64,000 nt of DNA, taken from Spinactinospora alkalitolerans (GTDB lineage: Bacteria; Actinomycetota; Actinomycetes; Streptosporangiales; Streptosporangiaceae). The notes beneath the pieces are model-generated. The model searched no databases. It saw only the letters and a list, made by a program, of their open reading frames with translations, and was not told where the DNA came from. The stretch is from assembly GCF_013408795.1 (NCBI RefSeq), contig NZ_JACCCC010000001.1:5704001-5768000 (forward strand), in the 5' to 3' direction. Below, in pieces: positions 28,271 to 57,513 of this stretch (position 1 is its first letter; each line of letters opens with the position of its first letter). Position numbers and translations under genes: made by a program.

Positions 28271-28795
28271 ATGGACAGGATCGCAATCATCGGATGCGGC
28301 GGCAGCGGCAAGACCACCATCAGCCGCCTGCTGGGGGCCGCCTTGAACGCTCCGGTCACCCATCTCGACGCCGTCTACTACGACGACGAGTGGAACACCC
28401 TGCCCAAGGAGAAATTCGCCGCCGTCCAAGAGGAACTGGTGGCCGAGCCGCGTTGGGTGATCGACGGCAACTTCGCCTCCACCCTCCCCATCCGGCTCAA
28501 GCGCGCCACCGCGGTCGTCTTTCTCGACATCGGCCCGCTCACCTGCCTGTGGGGGATCCTGCAGCGCCGCCTCGTCCACGGCGGCGGCCAGAACGACGCC
28601 ACCGGCGTCTACGACCGCATCCACTGGGGTTTCATCACCTACGTGTGGAACTACCGCAAAACCATGGGGCCTCGGGTTCGCAACCTGGTCCTGGAACACG
28701 GCGCCCACGCCGAGATCCACATCGTGCGGTCCCGCCGCGCCGCCAACCGGCTGGTCGAGAAGATCGCTGCCCAGGCCGCTGCAGCCGGTTCCTGA
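28271..28795 (+). CDS. P-loop kinase (adenylate-kinase-like / topology modulation family), copy 2
   Basis: The 174-aa product starts MDRIAIIGCGGSGKTT and is the paralogue of the minus-strand gene at 13663. The Walker A, the VIDGNFASTLP segment and the whole middle are identical or nearly so, and only the first 40 codons and the C-terminal 20 residues differ. It is the sixth gene of the operon, 59 bp after the radical SAM gene. In this context it could phosphorylate the modified nucleotide, but the existence of an orphan copy elsewhere weakens any pathway-specific reading. Confidence 0.8.
   Translation: MDRIAIIGCGGSGKTTISRLLGAALNAPVTHLDAVYYDDEWNTLPKEKFAAVQEELVAEPRWVIDGNFASTLPIRLKRATAVVFLDIGPLTCLWGILQRRLVHGGGQNDATGVYDRIHWGFITYVWNYRKTMGPRVRNLVLEHGAHAEIHIVRSRRAANRLVEKIAAQAAAAGS
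28426..28752 (+). repeat. Long inverted repeat, right arm (partner 13718-14044)
   Basis: This segment is nearly identical to the reverse complement of 13718-14044. See the left arm. The boundaries fall inside the coding sequences rather than at an insertion-sequence end, so no mobile element explains the copy. Confidence 0.8.
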
Positions 28796-28813
28796 CCCGG
28801 GGGGAGGCACACC

Positions 28814-29638
28814 CTGCCTTCCGTTAACCCGTTCCTCGACATCGACCAGATACGCGGTCCTCTGTACGCCGCGCCATACCGGCTCGCTCAGCGCACCGAC
28901 GCGCTGATCAGTGCCCGCATCAGCGGATCTCCGGTTGTCGAGGTGCTGGCAGAGCTGATCCGTGGCCGACTCCACACGCCCATCGCCGAGGCGAAGCTGC
29001 TCGATGTGGGCTGCGGGCGCGGCACCACCAGCCGGGCACTGGCCGCATTGGCGCCACGCGCACTGGTCGCCCTCGATCTCTCGTCTGCGCTCGCCGCCAC
29101 CGCGCGCGCTCGCCTTCCGGATCCCCATGCGGTGATCGCCGCGGACTTCCACCACCTGCCCTTCAGCGGCGGGGGTTTCGACGCGGCAGTGGCGGCGTTC
29201 TGCCTCTACCACGCCTCTGACCCGATCACCGTGATCACCGAGATCGCCCGCTGCCTGCGCCCCGAAGGGCTGTTCATCGCAGTCACCAAATCCCTAGACA
29301 GCTACAGCGAACTCGACACCCTGCTCGCCGCCAGCGGCCTGGTTCCCCGTCCGGATGACCGGCCGAGCCTGTATGAGGCGGCACACAGCCACAACATCGC
29401 CGCCCTGGCCGCGCCGGTCCTCGACGTCCTCCAGATCCGCCACGACGAGCACCGATTCCGGTTCACCAGCCTGGAGCACCTCGCGCGCTACCTCGCCACC
29501 ACGCCGAAGTATCCGCTGCCGGACCGGTTCCGTGACGCCCCGCAGCAACTCGCGAAGGAGCTGTGCCAACACCTCGTCGACGGCCCGGTGGAGGCGTCTT
29601 CCACCGTCACCTACCTTGTCGGAGCCCGGCGTGCCTGA
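28814..29638 (+). CDS. Class I SAM-dependent methyltransferase, apparent CTG start
   Basis: Motif I (AKLLDVGCGRGTTSRAL), an acidic ALDLS strand and the GGGFDAAVAAFCLYHAS segment identify a class I methyltransferase. The first ATG/GTG in frame is GTG 28943, but that would remove a well-formed N terminus (NPFLDIDQIRGPLYA and ALISARISG). The frame is open back to CTG 28814, which has a perfect GGGGGGAGG six bases upstream. I therefore annotate a CTG start, giving 274 aa. The gene follows the kinase by 18 bp and overlaps the next gene by 8 bp. Confidence 0.75.
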   Translation: MPSVNPFLDIDQIRGPLYAAPYRLAQRTDALISARISGSPVVEVLAELIRGRLHTPIAEAKLLDVGCGRGTTSRALAALAPRALVALDLSSALAATARARLPDPHAVIAADFHHLPFSGGGFDAAVAAFCLYHASDPITVITEIARCLRPEGLFIAVTKSLDSYSELDTLLAASGLVPRPDDRPSLYEAAHSHNIAALAAPVLDVLQIRHDEHRFRFTSLEHLARYLATTPKYPLPDRFRDAPQQLAKELCQHLVDGPVEASSTVTYLVGARRA

Positions 29639-30362
29639 GCATTTCACCAAGACCTACGAGCATCCCGGACACGCCCAGATCGCGGCCCGCCACCGCCACT
29701 GGCTCACCGCGCTGGGCGCCCCCACCCCGGCACTGCACCGCGTCACAGCACACCGGTTGCAGTTTGAGCAGCTCACCGGCCACCACGCCCGCCCGCAGGA
29801 CCTCCGCAGCGTCGCGCACCTCTTGGGACGCCTGAACGCAACCGCATACCTGCGGGAACTCCGCAACGCCCACCTGGAAAAGGAGTTCACAACCGACGGT
29901 GATCTGGTGCTGCCCGGATTCACCGCCCCGCGACTGGCCAGACTGCGTCGGCACCACAACGAAGGGCTGATCACCCCGCGGCAACGCGCCGAAGCCGCCG
30001 AACTGATCACCCAGGCCGCCGAGTGGCCCGCCACCTTCTACAAGGACTCCAACGTCCGCAACGTGCTCATCACCGGCTCGGGTCCCATCCTGGTGGACTT
30101 CGACGATCTCACGCTCGCCCCCTTCGGCTACGACCTCGCCAAACTCCTCGTCAGCGCCGCCATGACCCACGGCCCTCTCCCCCGCACCACATACACCGAG
30201 ACCTTGGCCGCCTACATCGACGGCGTCGAAAGTGCCGGCGGACCGGCCGATGCATATACCCAGGGCGATCTCGCCCACTGGTTGGAGATCCAGAACCTGT
30301 TCACCTCTCCCTACCTCGGCCACAACGGCTACCGGCACCCATGGCGGGCACCTCGCCTCTGA
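29631..30362 (+). CDS. APH-fold phosphotransferase-like protein
   Basis: The 243-aa protein resembles aminoglycoside/choline-type kinases. It has a catalytic-loop-like FYKDSNVRNVLI, with Asp and Asn kept but His replaced by Tyr, and a metal-binding VDFDDLTLAPFGYDLAKLL. The N lobe is short. GTG 29631 overlaps the methyltransferase stop. In a biosynthetic operon such enzymes phosphorylate an intermediate or provide self-resistance. The changed HxD motif makes the activity less certain. Confidence 0.7.
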   Translation: MPEHFTKTYEHPGHAQIAARHRHWLTALGAPTPALHRVTAHRLQFEQLTGHHARPQDLRSVAHLLGRLNATAYLRELRNAHLEKEFTTDGDLVLPGFTAPRLARLRRHHNEGLITPRQRAEAAELITQAAEWPATFYKDSNVRNVLITGSGPILVDFDDLTLAPFGYDLAKLLVSAAMTHGPLPRTTYTETLAAYIDGVESAGGPADAYTQGDLAHWLEIQNLFTSPYLGHNGYRHPWRAPRL

Positions 30363-31743: not shown

Positions 31744-32475
31744 TCATGGGCGGCGGCTCCAGGCATCATCTGAAAGAAGGCTGGCTAGGATGCCTGGGCT
31801 GTCAGCTCCTTCCAGCGTCTTCAGGGTGAGGTCGGCACCCGCCTCTGTCAGCTCCTCGGGGGTACTGCCCCCCGAGGCGACCGCGATCACGCGGGCTCCT
31901 GCTGTGTGTGCTGCCTCGATGTCTTTAGGGGTGTCCCCGATAAGGACCGTATTCGCCTGATTGAACGCAGCGCCGCGCCTTCTCTCAGCGCGCTTTCGGG
32001 CGATGCCGACCAGGGCGGGCCGGTCGGAGTCGTCGTCTCCGTAGGCACCGATTTCCAGATCGAGGTACTGGTCAAGACCGAAGGCGCTGATTTTGATCTG
32101 TGCGGCTTTCCTGGTGTTTCCGGTGAGAACGGTCTGGATGGTGCCGGGAACACGGCTGAGCTCGCGTAGCGCCACTTCGACTCCTGGCAGCGCCCGGCCC
32201 CGTTCTCGCAGTTCGTCCAGATGAGCGAGGTAGGAGTCTGCCTGCGCGTCCGCGAATCGGCGGAACAGGTCCTCGTCGCGGTCGTGGACTCTGTTGAGGT
32301 CGAGTGTCTGCTCCAGCAGAACGGGTTCGGTGTGCCCGTGCGCCTTGGCCATACCGGCGCTCATGGGCCGACCGGTGGCCTTCTCGAATGCCTCGCCGAA
32401 CACGACGCCCCCGACACCGCGGGTCTCGATCAGGGTGTGGTCGACGTCCCAGAGCAGAAGCAAATGGTCCGGCAT
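31744..32475 (-). CDS. HAD-superfamily hydrolase (phosphoglycolate phosphatase-like)
   Basis: The 243-aa protein has HAD motif I LLLLWDVDHTLIETRG (DxDxT, both Asp visible), motif II VLTGNTRKAAQIKISAFGL and motif III/IV VLIGDTPKDIEAAHTAGA. This is the PGP/beta-phosphoglucomutase group. I use ATG 32475 (MPDHLLLLWDVD) with GGAG upstream; longer starts at 32496 and 32532 exist. It is transcribed toward the biosynthetic operon and divergently from the XRE gene, so it may not belong to either cluster. Confidence 0.8.
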   Translation of the reverse strand: MPDHLLLLWDVDHTLIETRGVGGVVFGEAFEKATGRPMSAGMAKAHGHTEPVLLEQTLDLNRVHDRDEDLFRRFADAQADSYLAHLDELRERGRALPGVEVALRELSRVPGTIQTVLTGNTRKAAQIKISAFGLDQYLDLEIGAYGDDDSDRPALVGIARKRAERRRGAAFNQANTVLIGDTPKDIEAAHTAGARVIAVASGGSTPEELTEAGADLTLKTLEGADSPGILASLLSDDAWSRRP

Positions 32476-32571
32476 CGGCGGCTCCGAGTGAATCATTGAA
32501 GGGGCGTATTCGTGGGGATGGCGTTTTACCATGTACCCCGGGAATGGGATTCCAGCCGGAGAGGCGGGACG

Positions 32572-33786
32572 ATGTCGCTCGGGAGGACGTTCGCGCAGCG
32601 GCTACGGTGGCACCGTCGCAGGCAGGGAAAATCCCAGGCCGTGGTGGCCGGTCTTGCGGGCGTCAACGCCGAATACGTGGGTCAGATCGAGCGGGGACAG
32701 CGCACTCCGTCGCTGGATGTCGTCGAGGCCATCGCGAACGCTCTCGGCGTCACCGTCACCAACCTGGTCACCGACGCCACCGATCCCTCGCCCATGGCCG
32801 CGGACATCCGCCTGGCCTCCGAACTCCACCAGTCGCTCCTCCTCGGCGCCTCCCGTGACGGCGAGCCGGAGACCAGTCTGGTGGAACTGCGCGAGCGCGT
32901 CGACCATGCCTGGGACACCTGGCAGGGGGTGTCGGATCGCTACAGCCGCCTGGCGGCGTTGATTCCGGGGTTGATCGGCGATGTCGTGCGCGTCTGCGAA
33001 ACCGGGCGCACGGCGGGAACCGAGGAACAGCGGCTGGCCGCCGACGCCTACACGCTGCTGCGCACGGTGGCGCGCCGGATCAACCGTCCCGACCTCGCGC
33101 TGGTCGCGGCCGACCGCGGGCGGCGGGCCGCCGAGCTCGCCGATGATCCGATCCGGCTGGCCGGCGCGCGCTGGAATCTGGCGCATGCGCTGCTCGCCCA
33201 ACAGGAGCCTCAAACGGCGGAGGAGATCGCTCTGGCCGCGATCGCCGAGCTTCGCCCAGGCGGCGATCGGGACACCTTGGCCATGACCGGCGCACTCTGG
33301 CTCACCGCGGCCGTCGCCGCGGCTCGTTGCCGGCGCAAATTCGTGGCCCTGGAGCGCGTGGAGGAACACGCTGCCCTGCTCGCCGAGCGAACCGGAGAGA
33401 CCAACGTCGGTCGGGCCGCGTTCGGTCCGGCCAACGTGGCCTTGCACCTGGTGAGCATCGAATTGGAAGACGGCCAGGCCGCCAATGCGCTGGCGGTCGC
33501 CGACCGGATCGATCCGGCGCCCATGGCCTCCCGTGAGCGCCACACGACCCTGGCGCTCGATCTCGCCCGGGGGCATGCGCTTCGCTTCGAGGCCGGCGCC
33601 TCGCTGCTGCACCTACTGCAGGCCGAACGGACCAGCCCTGAGGAGCTGCGGTACAACCCAGCCGCCCACGACACCATCCGGCGGGTCTTTCACCGCGCGC
33701 GGCCCTCGCTGCGCTCCCAGGTGACCGGTCTTGCCCAACGCGTCGGAATCGAAGAGCAGATCGTCGCCGATCACACGCTTTCCTAG
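32572..33786 (+). CDS. XRE-family regulator with TPR-like domain
   Basis: The 404-aa protein has a canonical helix-turn-helix (LRWHRRRQGKSQAVVAGLAG; VGQIERGQRTPSLDVVEAIA) and a C-terminal TPR-like helical domain (ALVAADRGRRAAELADDPIR; GARWNLAHALLAQQEPQTA). ATG 32572 has GGAGAGG upstream. It stands just upstream of the P450/PKS operon in the same direction and is the candidate pathway regulator. Confidence 0.85.
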   Translation: MSLGRTFAQRLRWHRRRQGKSQAVVAGLAGVNAEYVGQIERGQRTPSLDVVEAIANALGVTVTNLVTDATDPSPMAADIRLASELHQSLLLGASRDGEPETSLVELRERVDHAWDTWQGVSDRYSRLAALIPGLIGDVVRVCETGRTAGTEEQRLAADAYTLLRTVARRINRPDLALVAADRGRRAAELADDPIRLAGARWNLAHALLAQQEPQTAEEIALAAIAELRPGGDRDTLAMTGALWLTAAVAAARCRRKFVALERVEEHAALLAERTGETNVGRAAFGPANVALHLVSIELEDGQAANALAVADRIDPAPMASRERHTTLALDLARGHALRFEAGASLLHLLQAERTSPEELRYNPAAHDTIRRVFHRARPSLRSQVTGLAQRVGIEEQIVADHTLS

Positions 33787-33881: not shown

Positions 33882-34157
33882 ATGGCCGAATTCCGGCTGA
33901 ACACGCCTGTATTCGTCGACCGTTCCAGACAGGACACGGGGATCGGTCGTCCCCGTAGAAACGATTCCAGCAGAAACAGTTCGCTCGGTTTCCGCCGCAC
34001 AGACTCGACTGCGCACAGCACGTTCAGCGTCGACCTGCGCAATGAGCGAGTTTCCATGACGGCTTTTCCGCCACCTCTTGGCCACCGCCGTGTCCTCCTG
34101 CCTTGCTCGGGCGCGTTCTCGGTGCTCCGTTCCTCCGATGCGCCGCGGGAGCGCTGA
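33882..34157 (+). CDS. Small basic hypothetical protein, coupled to the P450 gene
   Basis: The open frame of 91 codons starts at ATG 33882 with GAGGAG seven bases upstream and stops as TGATG over the P450 start at 34157. The product (MAEFRLNTPVFVDRSRQDTG...) is rich in Arg and Ser and has no signal peptide or motif I recognise. Third-position GC bias is weaker than in its neighbours, so the call rests mainly on the ribosome binding site and the coupled stop. It may be a leader peptide for the operon. Confidence 0.4.
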   Translation: MAEFRLNTPVFVDRSRQDTGIGRPRRNDSSRNSSLGFRRTDSTAHSTFSVDLRNERVSMTAFPPPLGHRRVLLPCSGAFSVLRSSDAPRER

Positions 34158-35563
34158 TGGTGCCGCACACTCCGCCCCAGAGCATGAGACCGGCCTCGCC
34201 TCTGCATGAGGCGGCCGTACCGCTCTACGGTGACGCGCTCACAGCAGAACTGCCGGTGGCTTTGGAGAATCTGCGGGGTCGGTTCGGGTCGATCGCTCCG
34301 GTGGAGATCGCGCCCGGGGTGGCGGCGTGGGTGCTGCTGAGCTATGACCTCAACCAGCGGGTTCTGCGGGACCCGGCGGGTTTTCCACGGGATCCACGGC
34401 GCTGGCGCGAGGCCCGCGAAGGCCGTGCAACGCCGGAGACGGTGCCGGGGCCGTTCTGGTACTTCCGCAACGCTTTGGCATCCGACGAGCCCGACCACAG
34501 CCGCTACCGCGCGGTGATCGCGGACGCGCTGGCGGCGATCACCGCCTCAGGCGCACGGTTGGCCGTCCGCGAGATCACCGCGGAGCTTCTCGCCGAGAAG
34601 GCTCTGAGTGGCCGGTGCGATCTGGTCGCCGACTTCGCGTTCCACCTGCCGCTGCTGCTGCTCAACGGCTACTTCGGGCTGCCCCGCGAGCAAGGGGCGA
34701 GGCTGGTCGGCCTGATGCGGCGGGTGTGGGACGGCGGTAAGGACGCCGAAGCCGCCCGGCTGGAGCTGTTCGGCTATGCCCAAGCCGTCACCGTCGACCG
34801 GCGCGCCCGTCCGGGCACCGACATCGTCTCGCGCATGGTCGCCCACCCCCACGGGCTCGATGACGAGGAGGTGGCCCACCAGCTCATCCTGGTCATCTCC
34901 GCGGCGCACGATCCGCTGATGAACCTGATCGCCAACGCCGTCCACACCCTGTTGGCCGACCGGGAGTTCCGGTCGGACGTGGCCGGGGCGCGCACCCGGA
35001 TCGAAGAGGCGATCGATGCGGTGCTGTGGCGGTCCCCGCCGATCACGCTGCTGCCCGGCCGCTACCCCACACGCGACATGGAGTTGGCGGGCGCGCGGCT
35101 GCGCGAGGGCGACTGCTTGATCATCGGCTACGGCCCCGCCCACGCCGATCCGGTCGTCGCCCCGAAAGCCGGCCCGGTCGGGTCTTCGGGGGCACGAACG
35201 CACCTGGCGTTCGGCACCGGTCCGCACCGGTGCCCCGCGCGCGATCTGGCCCGCCAGATCGGTGTCGACGCCGTCGGGGCGCTGCTGGACCTGCTTCCCG
35301 ACCTGCACCTGGCTGTGGCACCGCAGGCACTGCAACGGCGGCATTCACCATTCGCCCACGGCCTGGACGCACTGCCCGTGGTCTTCACCCCTACCACCAT
35401 CGCCCCGCCCGCATCCCCGTCCACGACCGGAGCGCCGTCATGCCCCCACGCCCCGACCCCATCGTCCTCGTCCCCGGACAGGCCCGCGCCCAGGCACACG
35501 ACCTCCAGGCGATCGGCCCGCTGGCACGCGTGGTGGTCGAAGGTCTGGAGGCCTGGGCGCTGA
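34157..35563 (+). CDS. Cytochrome P450, CYP157-like, lacking the EXXR motif
   Basis: The protein has a P450 haem loop (HLAFGTGPHRCPARD, Cys359) but two otherwise conserved features are changed. The K-helix position of EXXR reads AVLW (residues 288-291, preceded by Asp). The I-helix segment is SAAHDPLMN, without the usual acid-Thr pair. CYP157 enzymes of Streptomyces are the known group without EXXR, with Trp at the Arg position, and they are typically paired with CYP154 genes, as here. The frame continues 124 bp into the next P450 gene, giving a Pro/Ser-rich tail of about 50 residues that is probably incidental. ATG 34157 has GGGAG upstream. Confidence 0.85.
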   Translation: MVPHTPPQSMRPASPLHEAAVPLYGDALTAELPVALENLRGRFGSIAPVEIAPGVAAWVLLSYDLNQRVLRDPAGFPRDPRRWREAREGRATPETVPGPFWYFRNALASDEPDHSRYRAVIADALAAITASGARLAVREITAELLAEKALSGRCDLVADFAFHLPLLLLNGYFGLPREQGARLVGLMRRVWDGGKDAEAARLELFGYAQAVTVDRRARPGTDIVSRMVAHPHGLDDEEVAHQLILVISAAHDPLMNLIANAVHTLLADREFRSDVAGARTRIEEAIDAVLWRSPPITLLPGRYPTRDMELAGARLREGDCLIIGYGPAHADPVVAPKAGPVGSSGARTHLAFGTGPHRCPARDLARQIGVDAVGALLDLLPDLHLAVAPQALQRRHSPFAHGLDALPVVFTPTTIAPPASPSTTGAPSCPHAPTPSSSSPDRPAPRHTTSRRSARWHAWWSKVWRPGR

Positions 35564-36720
35564 CCCGCGACCGTGAGCTGCGCGCCGCGCTGACGGATCG
35601 CCGGTTCAAGCGGAACTGGCGCACCTGGACGGCACTGGTCGAGGGCGAGGTGTCGCCGGATCACCCGGCAGCGGCGATGGTCTACCTGGACAACATGCTC
35701 ACCGGCGACGGTGCAGACCACCGCCGGCTGCGCGGCCTGATCTCCCAGGGCTTCACCCCCAGACGCGTCAACGCACTGCGCCCGAGCATCGCGGCCACGG
35801 TCGAGCGCCTGCTGGACGGCATCACCGCAGTCCCCGGCCCGGTGGACATCAGAGCGGATCTGGCCTACCCGCTGTCCCTGGCGGTGTTCGGCGAGCTGTT
35901 CGGCATCCCTGCCGAGGAGCACGGCCGCCTGCGCCAGATGGTGGAGACCGCATTCTCCTTCGCCCCGCTCGAGCAGGTCCGCGCCATGCGTGCCGACGTG
36001 GACGCCTACCTGGACGAGCTGGTCGCCGCCAAGCAGGCCCGCCCGGGCGGCGACGCGGTCTCGGCGCTGATCGGAGCGCGCGACCGCGGCGACCGGCTCA
36101 GCACCGCCGAACTGCGCGACACCCTGTGGCTGCTGATCACCGCCGGATTCGAGACCACCGCCTCGGCGCTGGCCAACGCCGTCGAGATGTTGCTGTCGAA
36201 CCCTGATCAGCTCGCCCGGCTGTGTGCCGGGGCCCTGGAGTGGCCGATCGCCGTCGAGGAGGTCCTGCGCCAGGCCACCGGCGTCGCCGCTCTGCCGTTC
36301 CTCTTCGCCGGAGAGGACATCACATTGGCCGGGCACACGATCGCGGCCGGCGAACCGGTGCTGCTGTGCTATCTGGCCGCGAACCTCGATTCGGCGCGCT
36401 ACGGCCCCGGCGCCGAAGAATTCGACATCACCCGCTCGCGCCCGCGGCATCTGGGCTTCGGGCACGGCCCGCACGTGTGCCTGGGTGCGGCGCTGGCGCG
36501 GCTGGAGCTGGAGGTCGCGCTGTCGGCGCTGTTCACCCGCTTTCCCGACATCAGCCTCGCTGACGGCTCCGCGGCGTCGCGGGCGGCCTCGGTCTTCATC
36601 AACGTCCCCGCAGCCGTGCGTGTGCGGCCGGGGCCTGCCGCAGTCGCCACCGGCGCACCCCAGCCACTCACACGTAAAACGCCCGACCACACCGATGAAG
36701 GAACCCGGAACCGTGTCTGA
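35440..36720 (+). CDS. Cytochrome P450, CYP154-like
   Basis: The 426-aa enzyme has all classic elements: I helix LLITAGFETTASAL (acid-alcohol pair), K helix EEVLRQATG (EXXR) and haem loop HLGFGHGPHVCLGAALA with Cys347 as thiolate ligand. It is a soluble class I bacterial P450 and needs ferredoxin and a reductase, neither of which is encoded nearby. ATG 35440 lies 124 bp inside the preceding P450 frame. The CYP157/CYP154-like pair is well known from conservon loci of Streptomyces. Confidence 0.88.
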   Translation: MPPRPDPIVLVPGQARAQAHDLQAIGPLARVVVEGLEAWALTRDRELRAALTDRRFKRNWRTWTALVEGEVSPDHPAAAMVYLDNMLTGDGADHRRLRGLISQGFTPRRVNALRPSIAATVERLLDGITAVPGPVDIRADLAYPLSLAVFGELFGIPAEEHGRLRQMVETAFSFAPLEQVRAMRADVDAYLDELVAAKQARPGGDAVSALIGARDRGDRLSTAELRDTLWLLITAGFETTASALANAVEMLLSNPDQLARLCAGALEWPIAVEEVLRQATGVAALPFLFAGEDITLAGHTIAAGEPVLLCYLAANLDSARYGPGAEEFDITRSRPRHLGFGHGPHVCLGAALARLELEVALSALFTRFPDISLADGSAASRAASVFINVPAAVRVRPGPAAVATGAPQPLTRKTPDHTDEGTRNRV

Positions 36721-37039
36721 ACGGATCTCTGTCCCGCCCTACCGCTACGTCAATCCCGGCCCTCAGCGGGCGCGCCACCCTATCCAGGTCACCGATCTCG
36801 TGGCCGCGGCCGCCCCTGCTCCTGAACCGGCAGCAGCCCTGCACGGCGACGCCGTCGGCCTGCTCGCTCTGGCCCGCCGGGTCGGGCCGTGCTCGGTCAC
36901 CGGTCTGGCCACCGCAGCGGAGCTGCCCGAGGCCGTCGCCCTGGCCCTGGTCGCCGACCTGGAGCACGCGGGCCTGGTGCGCATCGACCCGGCCGGCACT
37001 CGCCTGGCCGGTGGCCGGGCCGAAAGGGGTGCCGCGTGA
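36713..37039 (+). CDS. DUF742 family protein (CvnC-like)
   Basis: The 108-aa product shows the DUF742 plan: a VPPYRYVNPGPQRARHPIQV opening, then a winged-helix-like region (ALARRVGPCSVTGLATAAEL; LVADLEHAGLVRID). DUF742 proteins are the third component of conservon operons (sensor, roadblock, DUF742, small GTPase, P450). Here only the P450s accompany it. GTG 36713 overlaps the P450 stop; an ATG at 36695 is an alternative. Its stop overlaps the monooxygenase start as GTGA. Confidence 0.8.
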   Translation: MSERISVPPYRYVNPGPQRARHPIQVTDLVAAAAPAPEPAAALHGDAVGLLALARRVGPCSVTGLATAAELPEAVALALVADLEHAGLVRIDPAGTRLAGGRAERGAA

Positions 37040-38328
37040 GGAGAATTCTGATCGTGGGCGGCGGCCAGTCCGCGCTGTATCTGGGCCACGGGCTGCTGCG
37101 GCACGGCTATGAGGTGACGCTGATGACCGCCCAGACCACCGAGGAGGTGCGCGCCGGTCTGCCCTCGGTGCTGCAGTTCACCCCGCCTACTGTGCTGCTG
37201 AGCGAACGCGAGGCCGGCCTGCCGGTGTGGGAGAACGACGCTCCGCCCATCGAACGTCTGCGCATGCGGGTGCGGACGGGTGCCCACGAGGTGGCCTTCA
37301 CCGGGGCCTTCAGCGCCGGCTACGCCGTCTCGGTGGATCGTCGGTTGAAGATGGCCGACTGGCTGGAGCTGTTCAAGGCCCGCGCCGACGAGACCGGGCA
37401 CGGCCGGGTCATCACCCACGGCGTCACCGTCACCGACCTGGACTACTTCACCCGCCTGTTCGACCTGGTCATCGTCGCGGTCGGCAACGGCGAACTCGGC
37501 GAGCTCTTCGACCCCGATCCCACGCGCCAGGGCGGGGCGCATCCGCGCACCGTCGTCCAGGCCTACCTCGACGGCGACACCGTCGACGGCCCGGCGGAGG
37601 GGGTGATGGACGTGGTCTCCGCCCAGCCCGGCGGCCCGGACGATGCCGGTGAGGTGTTCTTCGCCCCGGTGCTCACCCACGAGGGGGCCGGGTATGCGGT
37701 GATGGCGCTGGCCGCGCCCGGCGGGCCGCTGGATGCGGCGGTTGCGGCCCGGCGAGCACGTGAGCGTGTCCGCCACGCCTTCTCCCCCGACCTGGCACTG
37801 CACACCCTGCTGACCCAGACCAAGACGTGGGCGCCGGAGGTCTTTGCGCGGATCGCCCACGCACGTCCCATCCGGGGCTCGGCGGTGCTGGGCCAGCGGG
37901 TGGATCCGGTGGTGCGCCACCCCGTCGGGGTGCTGCCCTCGGGTGGCCTGGTACTGGGGATGGCCGATGCGGTGGTGACCACCGGGCCGCTGTGCGGGCA
38001 GGGCTGGAACACCTCCACCCGGTGCGCCCAGGTCTATTTGGAGCACGTCCTCGCCCACGGGGACCGGCCCTTCGACGAGATGTTCATGGACGCCGCCTTC
38101 ACCGCGTTCTGGGACACCTACGGCGAAGCCTCCGCGGCGTTCTCCGAGATCAGCCACGGCGTCTTCCCCGCCCATTTCCCGCACCTGCTGGGCGCGGCCG
38201 GCGCCTTCGGCGAGGTCGCCGACCGGTGGGTGGACGGCATCGACGACCCCCGCAAGCTGCGCGACTGGATGTTCGACGCCGAGCGCGCCCATGCCTACCT
38301 CGCCCAGCTCACCACCTCCGCTTCGTGA
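37036..38328 (+). CDS. StyA-type FAD-dependent monooxygenase
   Basis: The 430-aa flavoprotein starts with the FAD dinucleotide fold (ILIVGGGQSALYLGHGLLRH) and carries the styrene/indole monooxygenase signatures SVLQFTPPTV and VIVAVGNGELGELFDPDP. StyA-type enzymes epoxidise or hydroxylate using reduced FAD from a separate reductase; I see no such reductase nearby. The gene is coupled to DUF742 upstream. In this cluster it would oxidise the polyketide or its precursor. Substrate unknown. Confidence 0.85.
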   Translation: MRRILIVGGGQSALYLGHGLLRHGYEVTLMTAQTTEEVRAGLPSVLQFTPPTVLLSEREAGLPVWENDAPPIERLRMRVRTGAHEVAFTGAFSAGYAVSVDRRLKMADWLELFKARADETGHGRVITHGVTVTDLDYFTRLFDLVIVAVGNGELGELFDPDPTRQGGAHPRTVVQAYLDGDTVDGPAEGVMDVVSAQPGGPDDAGEVFFAPVLTHEGAGYAVMALAAPGGPLDAAVAARRARERVRHAFSPDLALHTLLTQTKTWAPEVFARIAHARPIRGSAVLGQRVDPVVRHPVGVLPSGGLVLGMADAVVTTGPLCGQGWNTSTRCAQVYLEHVLAHGDRPFDEMFMDAAFTAFWDTYGEASAAFSEISHGVFPAHFPHLLGAAGAFGEVADRWVDGIDDPRKLRDWMFDAERAHAYLAQLTTSAS

Positions 38329-38365
38329 CCGACTCGCCTCTGCCTGTGCGTTGAAGGAGTCCGGC

Positions 38366-39049
38366 ATGCCCACCTCCCACCACGACGTCCCCGCCCGCGC
38401 CCCGTCTCTTGCCGACCGGATCGTCTACAGCAGCTTCGGCCTGGCCTGCTATGAGGCCGTGGTCGCCGCCTCATGCGCGGCGGTGTGGCGCTGCCCCCGC
38501 TCCGTTCTGCTGAAGCGCCTGTACCGCCCGCACGTGGGCGCGCGGCACCTGAGCATCGGCGTGGGATCGGGCGCGCTGCTGGACCGGGGCGACTTCCCCG
38601 TGCCGCAGCCCGATTTGCACCTGCTCGACCTCAATCCGGGTCCGCTGCGCCGCACCGCAGCCCGACTCGTCCGATACCGCCCCACCACCCACCGGGCCGA
38701 CGCCACACAGCCGCTGCCGGTCCCGGCGCGGTTGTTCGACTCGGCCGATCTGACACTGATGCTGCACTGCGTGCGCGGTGCCTCGATCACCCAGAAGGCG
38801 GCGGTGTTCGACCACGTCGCCCGGGCGCTGCGGCCGGGCGGGGTGGTCTTCGGCGCCACCGTCCTGGCCCGCGGCGTGCCGGCCAGTCCGGTGGCGCGGC
38901 GGCTCACGGCCTTCTACAACCGCACCGGGGTGTTCTCCAACCGCGGCGACCATCTCGCCGACCTCGACACCGAGCTTCGGGCCCGGTTCGGCTCCGTGCA
39001 CCTCGACGTCGTGGGCTGTGTCGCGCTGTTTGCGGGGGTGGCCCGGTGA
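38366..39049 (+). CDS. SAM-dependent methyltransferase
   Basis: The 227-aa product has a class I fold: motif I HLSIGVGSGALLDRG, an acidic-strand LHLLDLNPGPLRRTA and a VFDHVARALRPGGVVFG segment. ATG 38366 has AAGGAG upstream. It overlaps the polyketide synthase start as GTGA, so the two are coupled. The large out-of-frame reading frame that continues into the PKS gene is not real. Confidence 0.8.
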   Translation: MPTSHHDVPARAPSLADRIVYSSFGLACYEAVVAASCAAVWRCPRSVLLKRLYRPHVGARHLSIGVGSGALLDRGDFPVPQPDLHLLDLNPGPLRRTAARLVRYRPTTHRADATQPLPVPARLFDSADLTLMLHCVRGASITQKAAVFDHVARALRPGGVVFGATVLARGVPASPVARRLTAFYNRTGVFSNRGDHLADLDTELRARFGSVHLDVVGCVALFAGVAR

Positions 39050-42003
39050 AGACCCCCAAGCGTACGGCTGCGATCACCGGGATCGGCTGCCGCCTGCCCG
39101 GCGGCGTGCGCGGGCCGCAGGCGTTCTGGGACCTGCTGGTGCAGGGCCGCGGCGCCGTCGCCCCGGTTCCGGCCTCCCGGTGGAAGACCATGCGCGATCT
39201 CCTGGCGCCCGAGGATGCACCCGTCGAGCCGTGGCAGGCCGGCACCATCGACATCGACGACTTCGACCACGGCTTCTTCGGCATCAGCGCCGAGGAGGCG
39301 GCGGTCCTGGACGCCCAGCAGCGGCTCCTACTCGAAACCGTCGTGGAGGCCCTCTACGACGCCGGCCTGCCGCTGGCCGCGATCGCCGGCGGCCGCACCG
39401 GCGTCTACGTCGGATCGGCCAGCGTGGACCACGCCATGCTCGCCTTCGCCCCCGGCCGGCGCCCCGGCATGCTCACCGCCGGCGGGGCCGGGGCCAGCAT
39501 GCTCGCCGCCCGCACCGCCCACGCCCTCGATGTGCACGGCCCCGCCCTGACCATCGACACCGCCTGCTCCTCCAGTCTGGTGGCCGCCCACTACGCCCGC
39601 CGCGACCTCGAGTCCGGTGAGATCGACACCGCGATCGTCGCCGGAACCAACCTGCTGCAGAACCCGCTGATCACCCGCGCCTTCAACGACGGCGGCGTCC
39701 TCTCCCCGACCGGGCGCTGCCGCCCCTTCGACGCCCAGGCCGACGGCTACGTGCGCAGCGAAGCCATCGCCGCGGTCATCCTCCAACGCCTTGATGACAC
39801 CGGCCCGGATCGAGACCGTGCCTATGCGCTGCTGCGCGGCAGCGCCGTCAACTCCGACGGCACATCCATGGGCGGGCTGTTCGCGCCCAGCCGCACCGCC
39901 CAGGCCGCCCTGCTCGAGCAGGCATATACCGCTGCGCGGGTGCCCATGCAGCGGGTCGGGTTCGTCGAAGCCCACGGCACCGGCACCAAATCCGGCGACC
40001 GCGAAGAAGCCCTCGCCCTGGCCGCGGCGTTCGCCCGCACCGACGCCGACCCGCTGCTCATCGGGTCGGTGAAGTCCAACCTCGGCCACACCGAAGGCGC
40101 CGCCGGAATCGTCGGTCTGATCAAGGCCGCCCTGATCGCCTACCACGGCCAGATCCCGGCCACCCTGCACCACACGCAGATGCGCCCGACCCTGACCGCC
40201 CTCCCCCTCCGCGTCCCCACGGCCACCACGGCATGGCCGCGCCGCAGACACCGCACCCGGGTGGTGGGAGTCTCCAGCTTCGGCTACGGCGGCACCAACG
40301 CCCACGTCATCCTCACCAGCGCCCCGCGCTCCCACCGCCGCACGGTTCCCATCCCGCGAAAGCCCGAGGAGCCGGTCATCCTCCCGGTCTCCGCCCACAC
40401 GCCCCAGGTGCTCTCTGATACCGCTGCGGACCTGGCCGCCGCTCTGGACGACGGCGTCGACCTGCCCTCCGTCGCGGCACTGGCCACCACCGGCCGCGAC
40501 CACCACGCCCACCGCGCCGCCGTCATCGCCACCATCCCCGAAGACGCCCGCGCCGCACTGGACGCGCTGGCCCACGGCCAGACCCACCCGGCCCTCATCG
40601 GATCGCACCACGCCGAGCACCGGGCTCGGACGGTGTTCGTGTTCCCCGGCCAGGGCGCCCACGAACCGGCCATGGGCGCGGTGCTGGCGGCCCGCTTCCC
40701 CGTGTTCTCCGCGACGGTCGAGCAGGTCCAGGCGGCCATGGCCCGCTACGACGGCCACGTGCCCTGGCGCCCCGGTACCGTCCCGACCGGAGTGGCCGCC
40801 GTGCAGCAGGCGATCTTCACCATCCAGATCGCGCTGGCCGGACTGTGGCGCTCCCTGGGGGTGGACTCGGATGCGGTGGTGGGGCACTCACTCGGTGAGA
40901 TCGCCGCCGCCCACACCACCGGCGCGCTGTCCCTGGACGATGCCGCGCGGCTGGTCTGCGCCCGCAGCCAACACCTCGCCGCCGTCGCCGACCAAGGCCA
41001 CCTGCTGGCCACCGGCCTGACCCGTGAAGCCGCCGAAGAGATGGTCACCGCCCACGACGGGCGGATGTCGGTGGCCGCCGACAACGGCCCCGCCCACACC
41101 GTCCTCACCGGTCCCGCCACCGACCTCGACGCCCTGCACACCCACCTGAACGCCGACGGCGTGTTCGCGCGCCGAGTACCTGATAGCCCACCCGCGCACA
41201 GCCCGCTCCTGGACACCCGGCTGGAATCCTTCGCCGCTCAGATCACCGGGATCCGTCCGAAGGCATGCCCGGTGGACTTGGTCTCCACCGTCACCACCGA
41301 GCCGATCCCCGGCGGCCGACTCGACGCCGCCTACTGGACACGCCAACTGCGCGACCCGGTCGAGCTGCACGCCGCCATCCGCCGCATCGCCGAACAGGCG
41401 ACCACGGTGTTCGTGGAGATCACCGCACGCTCCACCCTGGCCGCAGCGATCGAGGACACCCTGGCCCACCACCGCCTGCCCGGCACGATCGTCGCCCCCG
41501 GCGTCTCCGCAGCCGGCGACGAGCACGCCCGCTTCCTGGCCGCCGCCGCCGAACTGTTCACCCACGGCCACGCCCCCGCCTGGCCGGTGAGCGCCCGGCG
41601 CCGACCCGCCGAACTACCGCCCCCGCGCTGGCACCACCACTCCACTCCCGCAGCGCCGCCCCGGTCCCCACTGGCCGAGGCGCTGTCAACCGCCCCACCC
41701 GATCAGCGCCGCGCCATCCTCGTCGACGCCGTCCACGCCAGCGTCACCTCGCTCCTACCTGACCGGATGCTGACTATCGCCGACCGCGACACCGAACTCG
41801 ACCTGCTCGGCATCGCCTCACGTGACGTCATGGTGCTGCGCGAGCGCATCCGCCGCCTGCACCCCACCCTGACCGGAATCGACGCCCCCACCCTGCTCCA
41901 CGCCCCCACCGTCAACGGCATCACCGACGCCCTCCTGCCCCACTTATCCAAGCAGCGAAGCCCCGAGGCCGCCCACCCGCCAACCAAGCCTCCCAGCCCA
42001 TGA
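39046..42003 (+). CDS. Minimal type I polyketide synthase, KS-AT with degenerate ACP
   Basis: The 985-aa protein carries a ketosynthase (residues about 8-430) with the Cys174 nucleophile in TACSSSL, His310 in HGTGTKSGD and His348 in NLGHTEGAAG. An acyltransferase follows (about 525-830) with GHSLGEIAAAH (Ser615). No ketoreductase, dehydratase or enoylreductase is present. The last 80 residues look like an acyl-carrier domain, but the usual Asp-Ser-Leu reads Ala-Ser-Arg (LLGIASRDVM, Ser925). The AT specificity motif is PPAHS, neither the malonyl HAFH nor the methylmalonyl YASH type. Starting at GTG 39046 it is coupled to the methyltransferase. It would make a short, unreduced chain, perhaps iteratively; that is inference. 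Confidence 0.85.
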   Translation: MKTPKRTAAITGIGCRLPGGVRGPQAFWDLLVQGRGAVAPVPASRWKTMRDLLAPEDAPVEPWQAGTIDIDDFDHGFFGISAEEAAVLDAQQRLLLETVVEALYDAGLPLAAIAGGRTGVYVGSASVDHAMLAFAPGRRPGMLTAGGAGASMLAARTAHALDVHGPALTIDTACSSSLVAAHYARRDLESGEIDTAIVAGTNLLQNPLITRAFNDGGVLSPTGRCRPFDAQADGYVRSEAIAAVILQRLDDTGPDRDRAYALLRGSAVNSDGTSMGGLFAPSRTAQAALLEQAYTAARVPMQRVGFVEAHGTGTKSGDREEALALAAAFARTDADPLLIGSVKSNLGHTEGAAGIVGLIKAALIAYHGQIPATLHHTQMRPTLTALPLRVPTATTAWPRRRHRTRVVGVSSFGYGGTNAHVILTSAPRSHRRTVPIPRKPEEPVILPVSAHTPQVLSDTAADLAAALDDGVDLPSVAALATTGRDHHAHRAAVIATIPEDARAALDALAHGQTHPALIGSHHAEHRARTVFVFPGQGAHEPAMGAVLAARFPVFSATVEQVQAAMARYDGHVPWRPGTVPTGVAAVQQAIFTIQIALAGLWRSLGVDSDAVVGHSLGEIAAAHTTGALSLDDAARLVCARSQHLAAVADQGHLLATGLTREAAEEMVTAHDGRMSVAADNGPAHTVLTGPATDLDALHTHLNADGVFARRVPDSPPAHSPLLDTRLESFAAQITGIRPKACPVDLVSTVTTEPIPGGRLDAAYWTRQLRDPVELHAAIRRIAEQATTVFVEITARSTLAAAIEDTLAHHRLPGTIVAPGVSAAGDEHARFLAAAAELFTHGHAPAWPVSARRRPAELPPPRWHHHSTPAAPPRSPLAEALSTAPPDQRRAILVDAVHASVTSLLPDRMLTIADRDTELDLLGIASRDVMVLRERIRRLHPTLTGIDAPTLLHAPTVNGITDALLPHLSKQRSPEAAHPPTKPPSP

Positions 42004-42068
42004 GGGACCCAGTCCTCGGCTCGCCACTCTGCGCCCGTAACCGCTTCCCACCCGACAGGCCAACGACC

Positions 42069-42905
42069 ATGCCCAGCAAGAACTCTTCCTTCCCGCCCGA
42101 CATCGATACGAGCACTCCCAGCCCGGCGCGGCTCTACGACTACTACCTCGGCGGCAAGGACAACTTCGCCAGCGACCGCCAGGCCGCCCAGCGCCTTTAT
42201 GCCAAGATTCCCGAGCTGCGCAGCATGGCCCTGGCCAACCGGATGTGGTTGCGCCGGGTGGTCAAGCACATGGCCCAGGCCGGCATTCACCAGTTCATCG
42301 ACATCGGCTCCGGGTTACCCACCCAAGACCCGGTGCACCAGGTCGCCCACCGCCACGCCCCCGGCTGCCGGGCCGTCTACGTCGATAACGACCCGATCGT
42401 GCTGGTCCACGCCCGCGCGCTCCTCGCCGACGACCCGGCCACCACCACGGTCGTCGAGGGCGACCTGCGCGATCCGCGCGCCATCCTCACCCACCCCGAG
42501 ACCCGACGGCTGATCGACTTCACCCAACCCGTCGGACTGCTCCTGATCGCGGTGCTGCACTTCCTCCGCGACGCCGACCACCCCTACGGAGTGGTGCGCC
42601 AACTGCGCGACGCGCTGTGCCCCGGCTCCCAGCTCGCGATCTCCCACGTCGACAACACCACCGCGCCGGAACGGGCGGCGTTCCTCGAATCAGTCTACGC
42701 CGCCTCCAGCGCGCCGGGCCAGACCCGCAGCCACCACGACATCGCCGCCTTCTTCAACGGGCTGGAACCGGTCGATCCCGGCCTGGCCTACGTGTCCGAC
42801 TGGCGCCCCGAGTCCGGCGACACCTACTTTCCGCCCGAGAAGGCCTGGGTCTATGGCGGCATAGGACGGATCCTCCGCCCCGCAGCCACCGACGCTCACG
42901 AGTGA
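42069..42905 (+). CDS. PF04672-type S-adenosyl methyltransferase
   Basis: The 278-aa product opens with the family signature TSTPSPARLYDYYLGGKDNF, followed by IDIGSGLPTQDPVHQVA, VYVDNDPIVLVHAR and LLLIAVLHFLRD. This actinobacterial methyltransferase family is abundant in Streptomyces, mostly without a known substrate. ATG 42069 lacks a strong ribosome binding site. It lies 65 bp after the PKS and may or may not share its transcript. Confidence 0.88.
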   Translation: MPSKNSSFPPDIDTSTPSPARLYDYYLGGKDNFASDRQAAQRLYAKIPELRSMALANRMWLRRVVKHMAQAGIHQFIDIGSGLPTQDPVHQVAHRHAPGCRAVYVDNDPIVLVHARALLADDPATTTVVEGDLRDPRAILTHPETRRLIDFTQPVGLLLIAVLHFLRDADHPYGVVRQLRDALCPGSQLAISHVDNTTAPERAAFLESVYAASSAPGQTRSHHDIAAFFNGLEPVDPGLAYVSDWRPESGDTYFPPEKAWVYGGIGRILRPAATDAHE

Positions 42906-46040: not shown

Positions 46041-47725
46041 GGCTCTGGCACGGATTCGGTGAAGCCTGGCTCTTCTCCGATCAGGCGGCGAGCAGCACGC
46101 GCTTGCGCAGCAGGTCCGGGTTGGCGCGCCCATACATCTGCCGCTTCAGCATCTTGAGCCGGTTGACGTGGCCTTCGACCACGCCGGAGCTGTGCGGCAG
46201 CGTCAGCCCGGCCACGACGGCGTCCCAGTCGCGGCCCAGACCGCGGACGAAGGAGTCGAGTTCGGGGATCCGCTCGCCCCGGGCCGCATTCATCCACTCG
46301 TCCAGTCGGTGGCCCTGCCGGTGGGCCATCATGCGAGCGAAGCCCTGAACACGCTCGCTGAGACCAGCCAGTTCGGGACAAGCTCGGAGTACAGCTTTGA
46401 GCTGGAGTTGCTGCTCGTGTTCGAGGTGGTCGGGGTGGCTGAGGATCCAGGCGGTGACCTGACGGACGGTGGGCGGCTGGGCGGGTTCGGGCGCAGGCAC
46501 TGACTGGCCGCGCCAGGGGCGGATGTGGTCGCGCACGCTCGCATAGCTTCCCCATAGCCCTGCTGTTGGAGTTCGTCCCAGAGCACGACGGCGTTGGTGC
46601 ACTCGTGGGCGAAGCGTTCGCGCAGGTAGGCGTCGTAGCGTTCCAGTCGGCGGGGGCGCTTGCCGGTGCCGTCGTGGGCCAGCAGCTCCTCGGCTGTGGC
46701 GGCGCGGGCGAAGCGGCGCACAGTGTTGCGCGCGAGGTCGAGTTCGCCGACGATCTCGGTGATGGTGCGCCCCTGAGCCAGCAGGTTGTGGACCTGTCGG
46801 TGGCGTCGGCGGGTGCGCTCGGCCAGCGGCCCCTGCCTGATTCCGGGAGACTCGGCCGGCGGTGTTGTCGGTGCCGGTTCGGGCGTGGTGCGGGGCAAGT
46901 CCCGGCGGTGGCGGGCGACAGCGCGCTCCACGGCCGCGGCGAGGTTCTGCCACAGGTGGAACCGATCGGCCACCTGCACCGCCTCCGGGGCGCCCTGGGC
47001 GATGCCGTCGGCATAACCCCCGGCCCGGTCCCGGCAGACGACCTCCACCCCGGGGTGCTGGATGAGCCACTCCTTGAGGGCCTGGGCCGAGCGCTCCGGC
47101 AACAGCTCCACCGGGCGCCGGGTCTGGGCATCGACCAGCAGGGTCCCGTAGACATGGCCCTTGCGCAGGGCGAAGTCATCGACGCCCAGGACCCGGGGGA
47201 CGCAGACCTCGGGCTCGCGTTCGGCGCGCACCTGGCGCAGCAGCGTCATCCGGCTCACGGCCGCGGCCACCCGCGCTGCCAGGCGTGCTCCGGCGCGCCC
47301 GCCCAGCGCCATGCCGATGCCGGCGAGCACGTCGCTCAGCCCCCGGCTGCGACGGGCGTGCGGCACGGTCAGACCGGGCACCTGCCCAGCGAAGATCCGA
47401 CGCCCGCAGGCGGGCACATCGCAGAAGAACCGGCGGACGCCCAGGTGGATCAGCACCTCCTGGCCGGAGACGGGAGTGTCGGCGAGGCGGCGGACATAGC
47501 GGCTATGCACGCGTTGTGACCGGGTCGCGCAGACCGGGCAGGCGGCGTCTTCGGCTCGGGTGGACGCCACGATCCGCACCGATAGCCCGGCCCGGTACAC
47601 GTCATCAATCCGCAGATCGACCAGGTGCGGGAAGAGCAGCGTGAAGAGGGAGGAGAGCGACACCCCGCATCATCGCGGGATCGGACCGACATCCGCAGGC
47701 GATTCACCGAATCCGTGCCAGAGCC
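46041..47725 (-). mobile_element. ISL3-family insertion sequence between arrays 1 and 2
   Basis: Terminal inverted repeats are visible: GGCTCTGGCACGGATTCGGT at 46041 and its reverse complement ending at 47725, matching over 23 bp. The element is about 1685 bp and carries a single transposase gene. The flanking 8 bp (TGAATACT left, CATTTTCA right) do not match, so no target duplication is present. The left flank looks like part of a spacer; the 54-bp right flank before the next repeat is not repeat-like for its first 21 bp. Confidence 0.9.
46081..47663 (-). pseudogene. ISL3-family transposase, frameshifted
   Basis: The gene starts at GTG 47663. The N terminus has a zinc-binding pattern (CPVCATRSQRVHSRYVRRLA; CDVPACGRRIF). 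The DDE domain follows, with LGVDDFALRKGHVYGTLLVD, CRDRAGGYADG and VADRFHLWQNL. The frame breaks at a run of four C (plus strand 46550-46553). The C-terminal part continues in another frame, with the catalytic-Glu region SSGVVEGHVNRLKMLKRQMY, to a stop at 46081. One restored base gives a product of about 528 aa. As it stands the transposase should be inactive unless the slippery run allows frameshifting. Confidence 0.88.
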
Positions 47726-51431: not shown

Positions 51432-52421
51432 CTACCACCCGGGGTCGAGTGCGTGGTTGATGCCTGCATCGACGGGGCCAAGGTCGGGGTCCCACAGATG
51501 GACGAGTTCGGGGTTTTGTGTCTCTTCTCCGGTCTCGTCGAGCTCGGGGGCGAGGAGTCGTTGGATGTCGTGGATGATGGCCGGCATGAGTCGGTAGAGC
51601 CGGAAGTCTTCGCGGAGGTTGCGGCGGGCTTCTCGGTCGGGGTTACCGCTTTTGTTGAGGGAGAAGGCCATCGGGATGGTGTGTTTGGCTTTGTACAGGT
51701 CGGCGATGTCGTAGACGAAGGCATGCTGTTTGCCGCTGTGGACGAAGCCGAGGGCGGGTGAGCATCCCAGGGCGAGGATGGCGGCGTGCACGACGCCGTA
51801 CAGTGCAGTGTTTGCGGCTGATAGTGCTTGGTTGACGGGGTTCTGCTGGTCCCAGTTCTCGGGGTTGTAGTTGCGTTTGAAGCCGCGTATGCGGTGCTTG
51901 TCGGCGAGCATCTGGTACATGAGCTTCATTCGCTGGCCTTCCAGGCCGCGAAGCTGTTGCAGTGTGATGCCTTCGGGGACACCGGCGCCGAATCGCATCT
52001 CATACATGCGCACGGCGATGGCGAGACGGGCGGTGTCGTCGGCCCAGGCCCGGGCTTGGCGTTCGAGCCAGTCGGTGGTGAGTTCGCTGGGTTGGCTGGC
52101 CGAGTACATCCGTACCGCGCCGGAGCCGGTCCACACCACGGTGGTGCCGTGGCGGGCCATGGTGGCCATCGCGGGGTTGGTGGCCGAGGTGCCGGTGCCC
52201 AGTAGCACGCATGCCAGGGATGCGACCGGCAGGTAGACGCGGTCGGCGCTGCCGTCGGTTTTGGCGACTTGGGCGCACACTCCGGTGTCGTCTTGGACGA
52301 CGCGCACGTTCTCCAGGTAGAGGAAGGACAGGGAGTCGGCGATGCGCGGCAGCATCGCCAGGGTGGGGGCTGAGAGGGCGCGCCTGGCGCTGCTGAAGGA
52401 GGTCGACACGAGGAGGCTCAT
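51432..52421 (-). CDS. cas1: CRISPR-associated endonuclease Cas1, type I-E
   Basis: The 329-aa protein has the Cas1e layout: a beta-rich N domain (LPRIADSLSFLYLENVRVVQ) and a helical catalytic domain with KRNYNPENWDQQNPVNQALS, then LGFVHSGKQHAFVYDIADLY. The latter contains the conserved His and Asp of the metal site. ATG 52421 overlaps the cas6e stop as ATGA. The longer frame to 52649 is out-of-frame read-through. Confidence 0.95.
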   Translation of the reverse strand: MSLLVSTSFSSARRALSAPTLAMLPRIADSLSFLYLENVRVVQDDTGVCAQVAKTDGSADRVYLPVASLACVLLGTGTSATNPAMATMARHGTTVVWTGSGAVRMYSASQPSELTTDWLERQARAWADDTARLAIAVRMYEMRFGAGVPEGITLQQLRGLEGQRMKLMYQMLADKHRIRGFKRNYNPENWDQQNPVNQALSAANTALYGVVHAAILALGCSPALGFVHSGKQHAFVYDIADLYKAKHTIPMAFSLNKSGNPDREARRNLREDFRLYRLMPAIIHDIQRLLAPELDETGEETQNPELVHLWDPDLGPVDAGINHALDPGW

Positions 52422-54953: not shown

Positions 54954-54985
54954 GTGTCCTCATCGGTGTCGGTGATGCTGGTGTG

Positions 54986-57186: not shown

Positions 57187-57233
57187 CGCAGGCTCCTCAC
57201 GGACGCCTCGGGAGGCAGGGGATAAGGTTCATG

Positions 57234-57322
57234 AGGTTCTCCACGGAAGTGGAGGTGAACCGGTTGCCGAGGATCAGTCCACGATCTGATCCAGTTGCTC
57301 TCCACGCATGTGGAGGTTGGGC
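57234..57322 (+). ncRNA. Degenerate mini-CRISPR: two diverged repeats and one spacer (crRNA-like RNA)
   Basis: Two repeat-like segments at 57234-57261 and 57295-57322 flank a spacer of the exact array length: 33 bp, or 32 bp after the PAM-derived G. They read in the plus direction, opposite to all three arrays. Both keep the Cas6e stem CTCCAC/GTGGAG, with loops GGAA and GCAT. The first also keeps the full handle GTGAACCG, while the handle part of the second has decayed. The conserved parts are those needed for one mature crRNA. The position between cas3 and cse1 recalls CreA/CreR-type crRNA-like regulators. Confidence 0.8.
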
Positions 57323-57494: not shown

Positions 57495-57513
57495 CTTCTG
57501 CGGTTTCCGACTT

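What the first reader, a model, noticed from the sequence alone, without database searches (positions are those of the whole stretch)
39046..42003. Minimal KS-AT polyketide synthase with a degenerate carrier motif
The ACP-like tail has Ala-Ser-Arg in place of Asp-Ser-Leu, and the AT motif PPAHS fits neither malonyl nor methylmalonyl type. Either a separate carrier protein is used or phosphopantetheinylation occurs at an atypical site. With StyA-type oxidation, methylation and two P450s, the product is likely a small, highly oxidised and unusual polyketide.
Basis: partly seen in the sequence, partly recalled or inferred. Interest (0 to 1): 0.65.

Follow-up and report, generated by a model that had tools for sequence, protein, structure and literature searches.

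The report
Minimal polyketide synthase beside conservon genes
A small, apparently intact bacterial polyketide-making enzyme sits in an operon with genes related to a bacterial G-protein signalling cassette; its supposedly degenerate part looks like a normal carrier site, so the surprise is the company it keeps.

Summary
The gene is real: 39046-42003 encodes a 985-aa KS-AT-ACP protein. Its carrier is not degenerate. The phosphopantetheine serine is present (codon 41818-41820) and kept in 27 of 27 clade members; family profile and predicted fold give a polyketide ACP; the nearest relative reads Asp-Ser-Arg. KS, AT and ACP catalytic residues are invariant in 19 of 19 aligned. These proteins form one supported clade, usually behind a StyA-like flavoprotein and a methyltransferase (21 of 26 loci). 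The unexpected part is the setting. In a similarity-chosen sample, 72 of 127 StyA relatives lie behind complete conservon (CvnABCD) genes, and 18 of 18 loci examined from two other families have CvnB-C-D upstream. In the window only CvnC plus a P450 pair remain. The pair resembles conservon-linked CYP157/CYP154; the first lacks EXXR, so 'two tailoring P450s' is doubtful. Beside methyltransferase-PKS cassettes the CvnD-like protein kept its P-loop in only 3 of 9 hits. Product and activity are unknown. I read this as a working minimal PKS in a conservon-derived operon: a new variant of known kinds.

The parts
39046..42003 (+). Minimal type I PKS, KS-AT-ACP, 985 aa, GTG start; KS Cys codon 39565-39567, AT Ser codon 40888-40890, AT His codon 41197-41199
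   Evidence: catalytic residues invariant in 19 of 19; one clade
41611..42000 (+). C-terminal ACP region; phosphopantetheine Ser codon 41818-41820 (Ala-Ser-Arg)
38363..39049 (+). Class I SAM methyltransferase (called MT1 here), overlaps the PKS start by 4 nt
   Evidence: Pfam Methyltransf_12 and _11 over cut-off; overlap
37036..38328 (+). StyA/indole monooxygenase-like flavoprotein
   Evidence: Smoa_sbd over cut-off; closest solved chain 7z97 E 1.2e-57
36713..37039 (+). CvnC-like protein (DUF742), overlaps StyA by 4 nt
   Evidence: PF05331 E 5e-10; overlap
35428..36720 (+). P450b, CYP154-like, EXXR kept; start codon uncertain
   Evidence: CYP154A1 (1odo) E 3.3e-80, CYP154C1 (1gwi) E 8.1e-80 (four other P450 structures score better); alignment
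34103..35563 (+). P450a, CYP157-like, AVLW where EXXR is expected; start codon uncertain
   Evidence: CYP157 comparison from PMC3599690 passages
42000..42905 (+). S-adenosyl methyltransferase PF04672 (called MT19 here), overlaps the PKS end by 4 nt
   Evidence: E 4e-98; family present in 7 of 19 cassette loci
32512..33786 (+). XRE-type regulator upstream; membership in the operon uncertain
   Evidence: HTH_31

Best explanation
A working minimal type I PKS inside a conservon-derived operon. Inferred steps: a phosphopantetheinyl transferase makes holo-ACP at Ser925. The AT loads a malonyl-type extender (Arg640 kept, GHSLG). The KS takes an acyl starter in trans, since there is no loading module, and extends it once or a few times. 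With no KR/DH/ER/TE the chain stays a beta-keto thioester or cyclises on release. The coupled methyltransferase and the StyA-like flavoprotein then modify it. The P450 pair and CvnC are conservon parts kept beside it, more likely regulatory or sensory than dedicated tailoring. Shown from sequence: domains, intact catalytic residues, ACP-like fold, conserved gene order, conservon linkage, loss of the CvnD P-loop in several relatives. Not shown: activity, starter, extender, number of rounds, product, regulation, one transcript.
For: C174, H310, K343, H348 (KS), S615, R640, H718 (AT), G922 and S925 (ACP) invariant in 19 of 19. Tail profile hits the PKS ACP 6h0q at 8.9e-12; model pLDDT 89, Ser at a helix start; Foldseek best matches mostly PKS ACPs, prob 1.00, best E 1.3e-2. 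KS-AT tree: 27-row clade, SH-aLRT 100. StyA-MT1-PKS in that order and strand in 21 of 26 loci; 4-nt MT1/PKS overlap possible in 20 of 23. Conservon linkage of StyA. P-loop kept in 54 of 58 CvnD hits beside a PKS without MT1 and 23 of 23 without a PKS, but 3 of 9 beside MT1+PKS. Fused CvnC-D protein folds like the GTPase MglA, E 8.5e-6. Plasmid copies.
Against: The window has no CvnA, B or D found. 26 of 127 StyA hits have no Cvn gene found nearby, among them this genome's second minimal cassette L078; 9 of 26 cassette loci show none. The StyA tree needs at least 4 changes for the cassette label, so no single StyA lineage. Four StyA loci have MT1 but no KS near (L173, L176, L178, L185). L082 and L092 have the PKS but no MT1 or StyA found. 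The window tail alone fails the PF00550 cut-off. The plasmid StyA and Cvn-like proteins have no Pfam match at E<=0.01. No chemistry.
Confidence: 0.62

Rival explanations
1. The carrier is dead and a separate ACP in trans, or an atypical site, is used.
For: Window tail scores low by itself; flanking residues are Ala and Arg.
Against: Ser and Gly invariant in 19 of 19, Ser in 27 of 27; ACP-like fold with Ser at a helix start; nearest relative has Asp-Ser-Arg. No small gene family was seen to recur beside the cassette, but those gene calls were crude and no search for a discrete ACP was run.
Confidence: 0.07
2. The P450s and StyA are dedicated tailoring enzymes that make a highly oxidised polyketide.
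For: One run of overlapping or closely spaced genes; P450b keeps EXXR; the window StyA keeps a glycine-rich FAD motif.
Against: Same-strand P450s occur beside the cassette only in the window and L079 of the 26 loci (L145 has one on the opposite strand); P450a lacks EXXR; CYP157s without EXXR are reported as conservon-linked (PMC3599690 passages).
Confidence: 0.2
3. A fragment of a modular PKS or a decaying gene.
For: Domain set equals one plain module without a reducing domain.
Against: Lengths from KS match to stop are 943-994 aa in all 27, catalytic residues invariant in 19 of 19, separate clade.
Confidence: 0.03
4. An intact PKS cassette that lies near conservon genes without a functional link to them.
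For: 26 of 127 StyA hits and 9 of 26 cassette loci show no Cvn gene; several cassettes carry Cvn parts on the opposite strand.
Against: Repeated adjacency across many genera; 4-nt CvnC/StyA overlap in the window; Cvn parts beside 17 of 26 cassettes.
Confidence: 0.25

Closest known systems
Modular type I PKS modules (Lsd14, DEBS)
   Same: KS-AT-ACP order and catalytic residues; best solved sequence match 7s6b (Lsd14), E 4.1e-142
   Different: Stand-alone 985-aa protein, no KR found, AT motif PAHS where Lsd14 has YASHS (alignment), separate clade
Conservons / actinobacterial G-protein systems (PMC8510531 and PMC13343842, passages read)
   Same: CvnC and CvnE-type P450 genes in the window; StyA relatives lie directly behind CvnD in many genomes
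   Different: The passages name P450 (CvnE) and GAF (CvnF) accessories; no library paper holds both 'conservon' and 'styrene monooxygenase', and 'polyketide' does not occur in either main text. The window lacks CvnA, B and D
Conservon-linked indole prenyltransferase clusters (PMC3617294, passages read)
   Same: Conservon upstream of small-molecule biosynthesis genes
   Different: No PKS of this kind in the passages seen
Frankiamicin cluster of Frankia (PMC4383371, passages read)
   Same: Conservon inside a polyketide cluster
   Different: Type II PKS
StyA/indole monooxygenase family (7z97, 3ihm)
   Same: Whole-length similarity, Smoa_sbd domain
   Different: Far below the NCBIfam cut-off for StyA proper (103.3 of 550 bits); a StyB partner was not searched for
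CYP157/CYP154 P450s
   Same: P450a has Trp where EXXR has Arg, as reported for CYP157; P450b close to CYP154A1 and C1
   Different: Family assignment by the identity rule not tested; P450a also lacks the Glu

Membership tests
Type I PKS (KS-AT-ACP) | KS, AT and ACP in one chain | tested here: met
   ACP by family profile and fold, not by the window tail alone
Type I PKS (KS-AT-ACP) | Active-site residues of KS and AT | tested here: met
   invariant in 19 of 19
Type I PKS (KS-AT-ACP) | Phosphopantetheine Ser | tested here: met
   27 of 27
Type I PKS (KS-AT-ACP) | Makes a polyketide | not testable with these tools
   no chemistry
Conservon | CvnA, CvnB, CvnC and CvnD together | tested here: not met
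   only CvnC and P450s found in the window; so conservon-derived, not a conservon
Styrene monooxygenase StyA | NCBIfam StyA equivalog cut-off | tested here: not met
   103.3 of 550 bits
CYP157 | No EXXR in the K-helix | tested here: met
   AVLW in the window and L079
CYP157 | At least 40% identity to a named CYP157 | not tested
   no named CYP157 sequence at hand
Malonyl-specific AT | Malonyl-type GHS[L/V]G and HAFH motifs (recalled) | tested here: inconclusive
   GHSLGE present, HAFH replaced by PPAHS

The most novel reading that the evidence does not exclude
A G-protein signalling module has been turned into a signal-making operon: the flavoprotein neighbour of conservons was joined by a methyltransferase and a one-module PKS, and the Ras-like switch then decayed to a pseudo-GTPase or was lost. 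The small product would be a diffusible signal or ligand read by other conservons of the same cell (nine CvnD matches in this genome).
Probability: 0.15. Interest if true: 0.82.

Novelty: new variant of a known kind. Interest (0 to 1): 0.55.

Why it matters
It ties a distinct clade of one-module polyketide synthases to a widespread but poorly understood bacterial G-protein system, and points to a StyA-like flavoprotein as a frequent neighbour of that system. That makes two open questions testable: what conservons sense or control, and what these small synthases make. It also offers natural cases of a bacterial Ras-like GTPase that has lost its nucleotide-binding loop beside a biosynthetic cassette.

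Tried and rejected
Degenerate carrier: rejected. Gene fragment: rejected on conserved length and residues. A starter-activating enzyme: an AMP-binding enzyme was found near L080, but I scanned only some neighbours, so its absence elsewhere is not shown. Recurring partners beyond StyA and MT1: MT19 in 7 of 19 loci; the other families shared by three or more loci look like transport, regulation, Cvn-type or APH-like proteins (mostly judged by eye). Known product: ten paper searches, judged by titles and abstract starts of capped lists, showed no matching cluster; the library is open-access only, so absence from print is not shown. Single-sequence PDB searches with the ACP tail and with a CvnD gave nothing. 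H14 (Streptomyces plasmid) is a PKS beside an adenylation protein and H2 a StyA locus with no conservon genes in its listed annotation; neither is in the counts.

Limits of the counts. The StyA census is not random: one search listed 104 of about 150 StyA places printed; most of the rest were already in hand and about 25 of the weakest were not fetched. Loci fetched as PKS relatives and L031 were added; 127 StyA hits of over 900 nt in 126 loci were counted. The other-family check used 18 loci, one each, of the 32 such genomes with a hit, with 1.5 kb flanks, so CvnA could not be seen. In the KS-AT tree the conservon-linked modular rows were thinned and other PKSs taken one per locus. L179 was labelled a minimal cassette by its MT1 hit, but its PKS falls outside the clade, so it is not among the 27. 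L161 and L175 have MT1 but only short KS hits and are not in the 26-locus table. Names such as f19 and f20 are unnamed families.

Full report
What is there. ORF 39046-42003 (+) encodes 985 aa with KS and AT domains over Pfam cut-offs; no KR, DH, ER or TE family is listed.

The carrier. By itself the tail is weak: PF00550 E 0.11, below the cut-off, and no PDB chain at E<=10. With its relatives it is clear. Of 19 tails, 18 match PP-binding at E<=1. The 19-sequence profile hits the ACP domain 6h0q at 8.9e-12 and many other PKS ACPs. The model has pLDDT 89 and Ser70 at the first residue of a long helix. Foldseek's best matches are mostly PKS ACPs, probability 1.00, but with modest E-values, 1.3e-2 at best and none under 0.001. 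Gly67 and Ser70 are invariant in 19 of 19. In the 27 members of the clade the Ser is kept in all: 24 by pattern, three read by eye. The nearest relative, L079 (64% identity), has Asp-Ser-Arg. The genome carries three PF01648 matches over the cut-off. I conclude that the carrier is ordinary.

The AT. PAHS is found in 24 of 27 clade members; the others are PGHS, PVHS and PAHH. A pattern scan of the loci held at that time found PAHS at this place only in loci of this clade. HAFH and YASH types are the commonest elsewhere, with other types such as GAGH present. The Ser-His pair and Arg640 are invariant in 19 of 19. GHSLGE fits a malonyl type; that rule, and the likeness of PxH to bacterial FabD, are recalled, not tested. 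Extender choice is open.

The clade and the cassette. In a KS-AT tree of 83 rows (quick method, LG+G4, rows thinned, several of odd composition), 27 minimal proteins form one group with SH-aLRT 100; no conservon-linked modular PKS or other PKS of the tree falls in it. In 26 loci of this group (the plasmid locus L236 was handled apart), StyA-MT1-PKS lie in that order on one strand in 21. Two have MT1-PKS-StyA, one has MT1 and StyA on the other strand, and two (L082, L092) have neither found. Where MT1 lies just upstream, a 4-nt overlap with a PKS start codon is possible in 20 of 23; L084, L106 and L168 have gaps of 130-152 nt. Seen from StyA, four loci have MT1 but no KS near. The cassette also sits on linear plasmids of two Nocardiopsis strains with the same protein accessions; there the StyA homologue is annotated hypothetical, has no Pfam match, and was recognised by a profile built here (E 1.5e-61). 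MT1 relatives occur in 43 of 200 genomes of the order (E<=1e-15); their neighbours were not all checked. This genome has a second cassette at about 0.8 Mb (L078, PKS 50% identical).

The conservon link. Directly upstream in the window are a DUF742 protein (CvnC type) and two P450s. L080 has a kinase-like protein, a roadblock protein, CvnC and CvnD before StyA-MT1-PKS. Among 127 StyA hits, 72 have all four Cvn genes on the same strand within 5 kb upstream, 24 have one to three, 5 have Cvn genes within 5 kb but not in that place, and 26 have none found. In 54 of the 72 a KS-AT lies near without MT1; 50 of these 54 loci hold more than one KS-AT stretch, so they are mostly larger PKSs. In two other families, 18 of 18 loci examined have CvnB, C and D just upstream of StyA. 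In this genome 3 of 9 CvnD genes are followed directly by a StyA gene (only 7 of 22 StyA candidates were scored). The sample was chosen by similarity, so the fractions are not population estimates.

Decay of the switch. Beside a PKS without MT1, 54 of 58 CvnD hits keep the P-loop, and without a PKS 23 of 23; the four failures, in three loci, look like truncation or frameshift by eye. Beside MT1+PKS only 3 of 9 keep it; two of the six failures (L192, L195) lack just the Lys. Several cassettes have a fused CvnC-CvnD-like protein without the loop. Its model (pLDDT 74, six sequences) matches the Ras-like GTPase MglA best, E 8.5e-6, though TM-scores are low, 0.34 and 0.47. No CvnD was found in the window.

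The P450s. P450a has AVLW where EXXR is expected, in the window and in L079. PMC3599690 (passages) reports EVLW and EQSLW in CYP157s and their conservon linkage. P450b is close to CYP154A1 and CYP154C1. PMC8510531 and PMC13343842 (passages) describe P450s as CvnE accessories and GAF proteins as CvnF. No paper of the library holds both 'conservon' and 'styrene monooxygenase'. So the pair is better read as conservon accessories than as tailoring enzymes, but that is inference.

Verdict. Observation partly confirmed, interpretation partly supported. The best reading is a working one-module PKS in a conservon-derived operon with a methyltransferase and a StyA-like flavoprotein. The product is unknown; the signal reading is kept as the boldest one not excluded.

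Noticed in passing
window 51432-59823 (-): Type I-E CRISPR-Cas genes: Cas1e, Cas6e, Cas5e, Cas7e, Cas11e, Cas8e, Cas3e.
   Followed up: partly
window from 45315; listed copies reach 49089, 33 more not listed: CRISPR array with 61-bp spacing, 63 copies of the reference reported, with a 1.9-kb break that holds ORFs on the minus strand at 46081-47663, transposase-like by eye only.
   Followed up: no
window 28271-30362: Kinase-like, methyltransferase and APH-like gene trio; relatives (75, 62 and 56% identity) lie a few kb upstream of another minimal-PKS cassette in L088, so it may travel with the cassette.
   Followed up: no
window 31744-32532 (-): HAD hydrolase with a 68% relative on the same side of the L079 cassette.
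   Followed up: no
L081 7101-13717: Minimal PKS flanked by two StyA genes of different lineages.
   Followed up: no
L236 18623-19953: The plasmid cassette lies about 7 kb from an ATP-grasp-modified RiPP pair, tgmA/tgmB.
   Followed up: no
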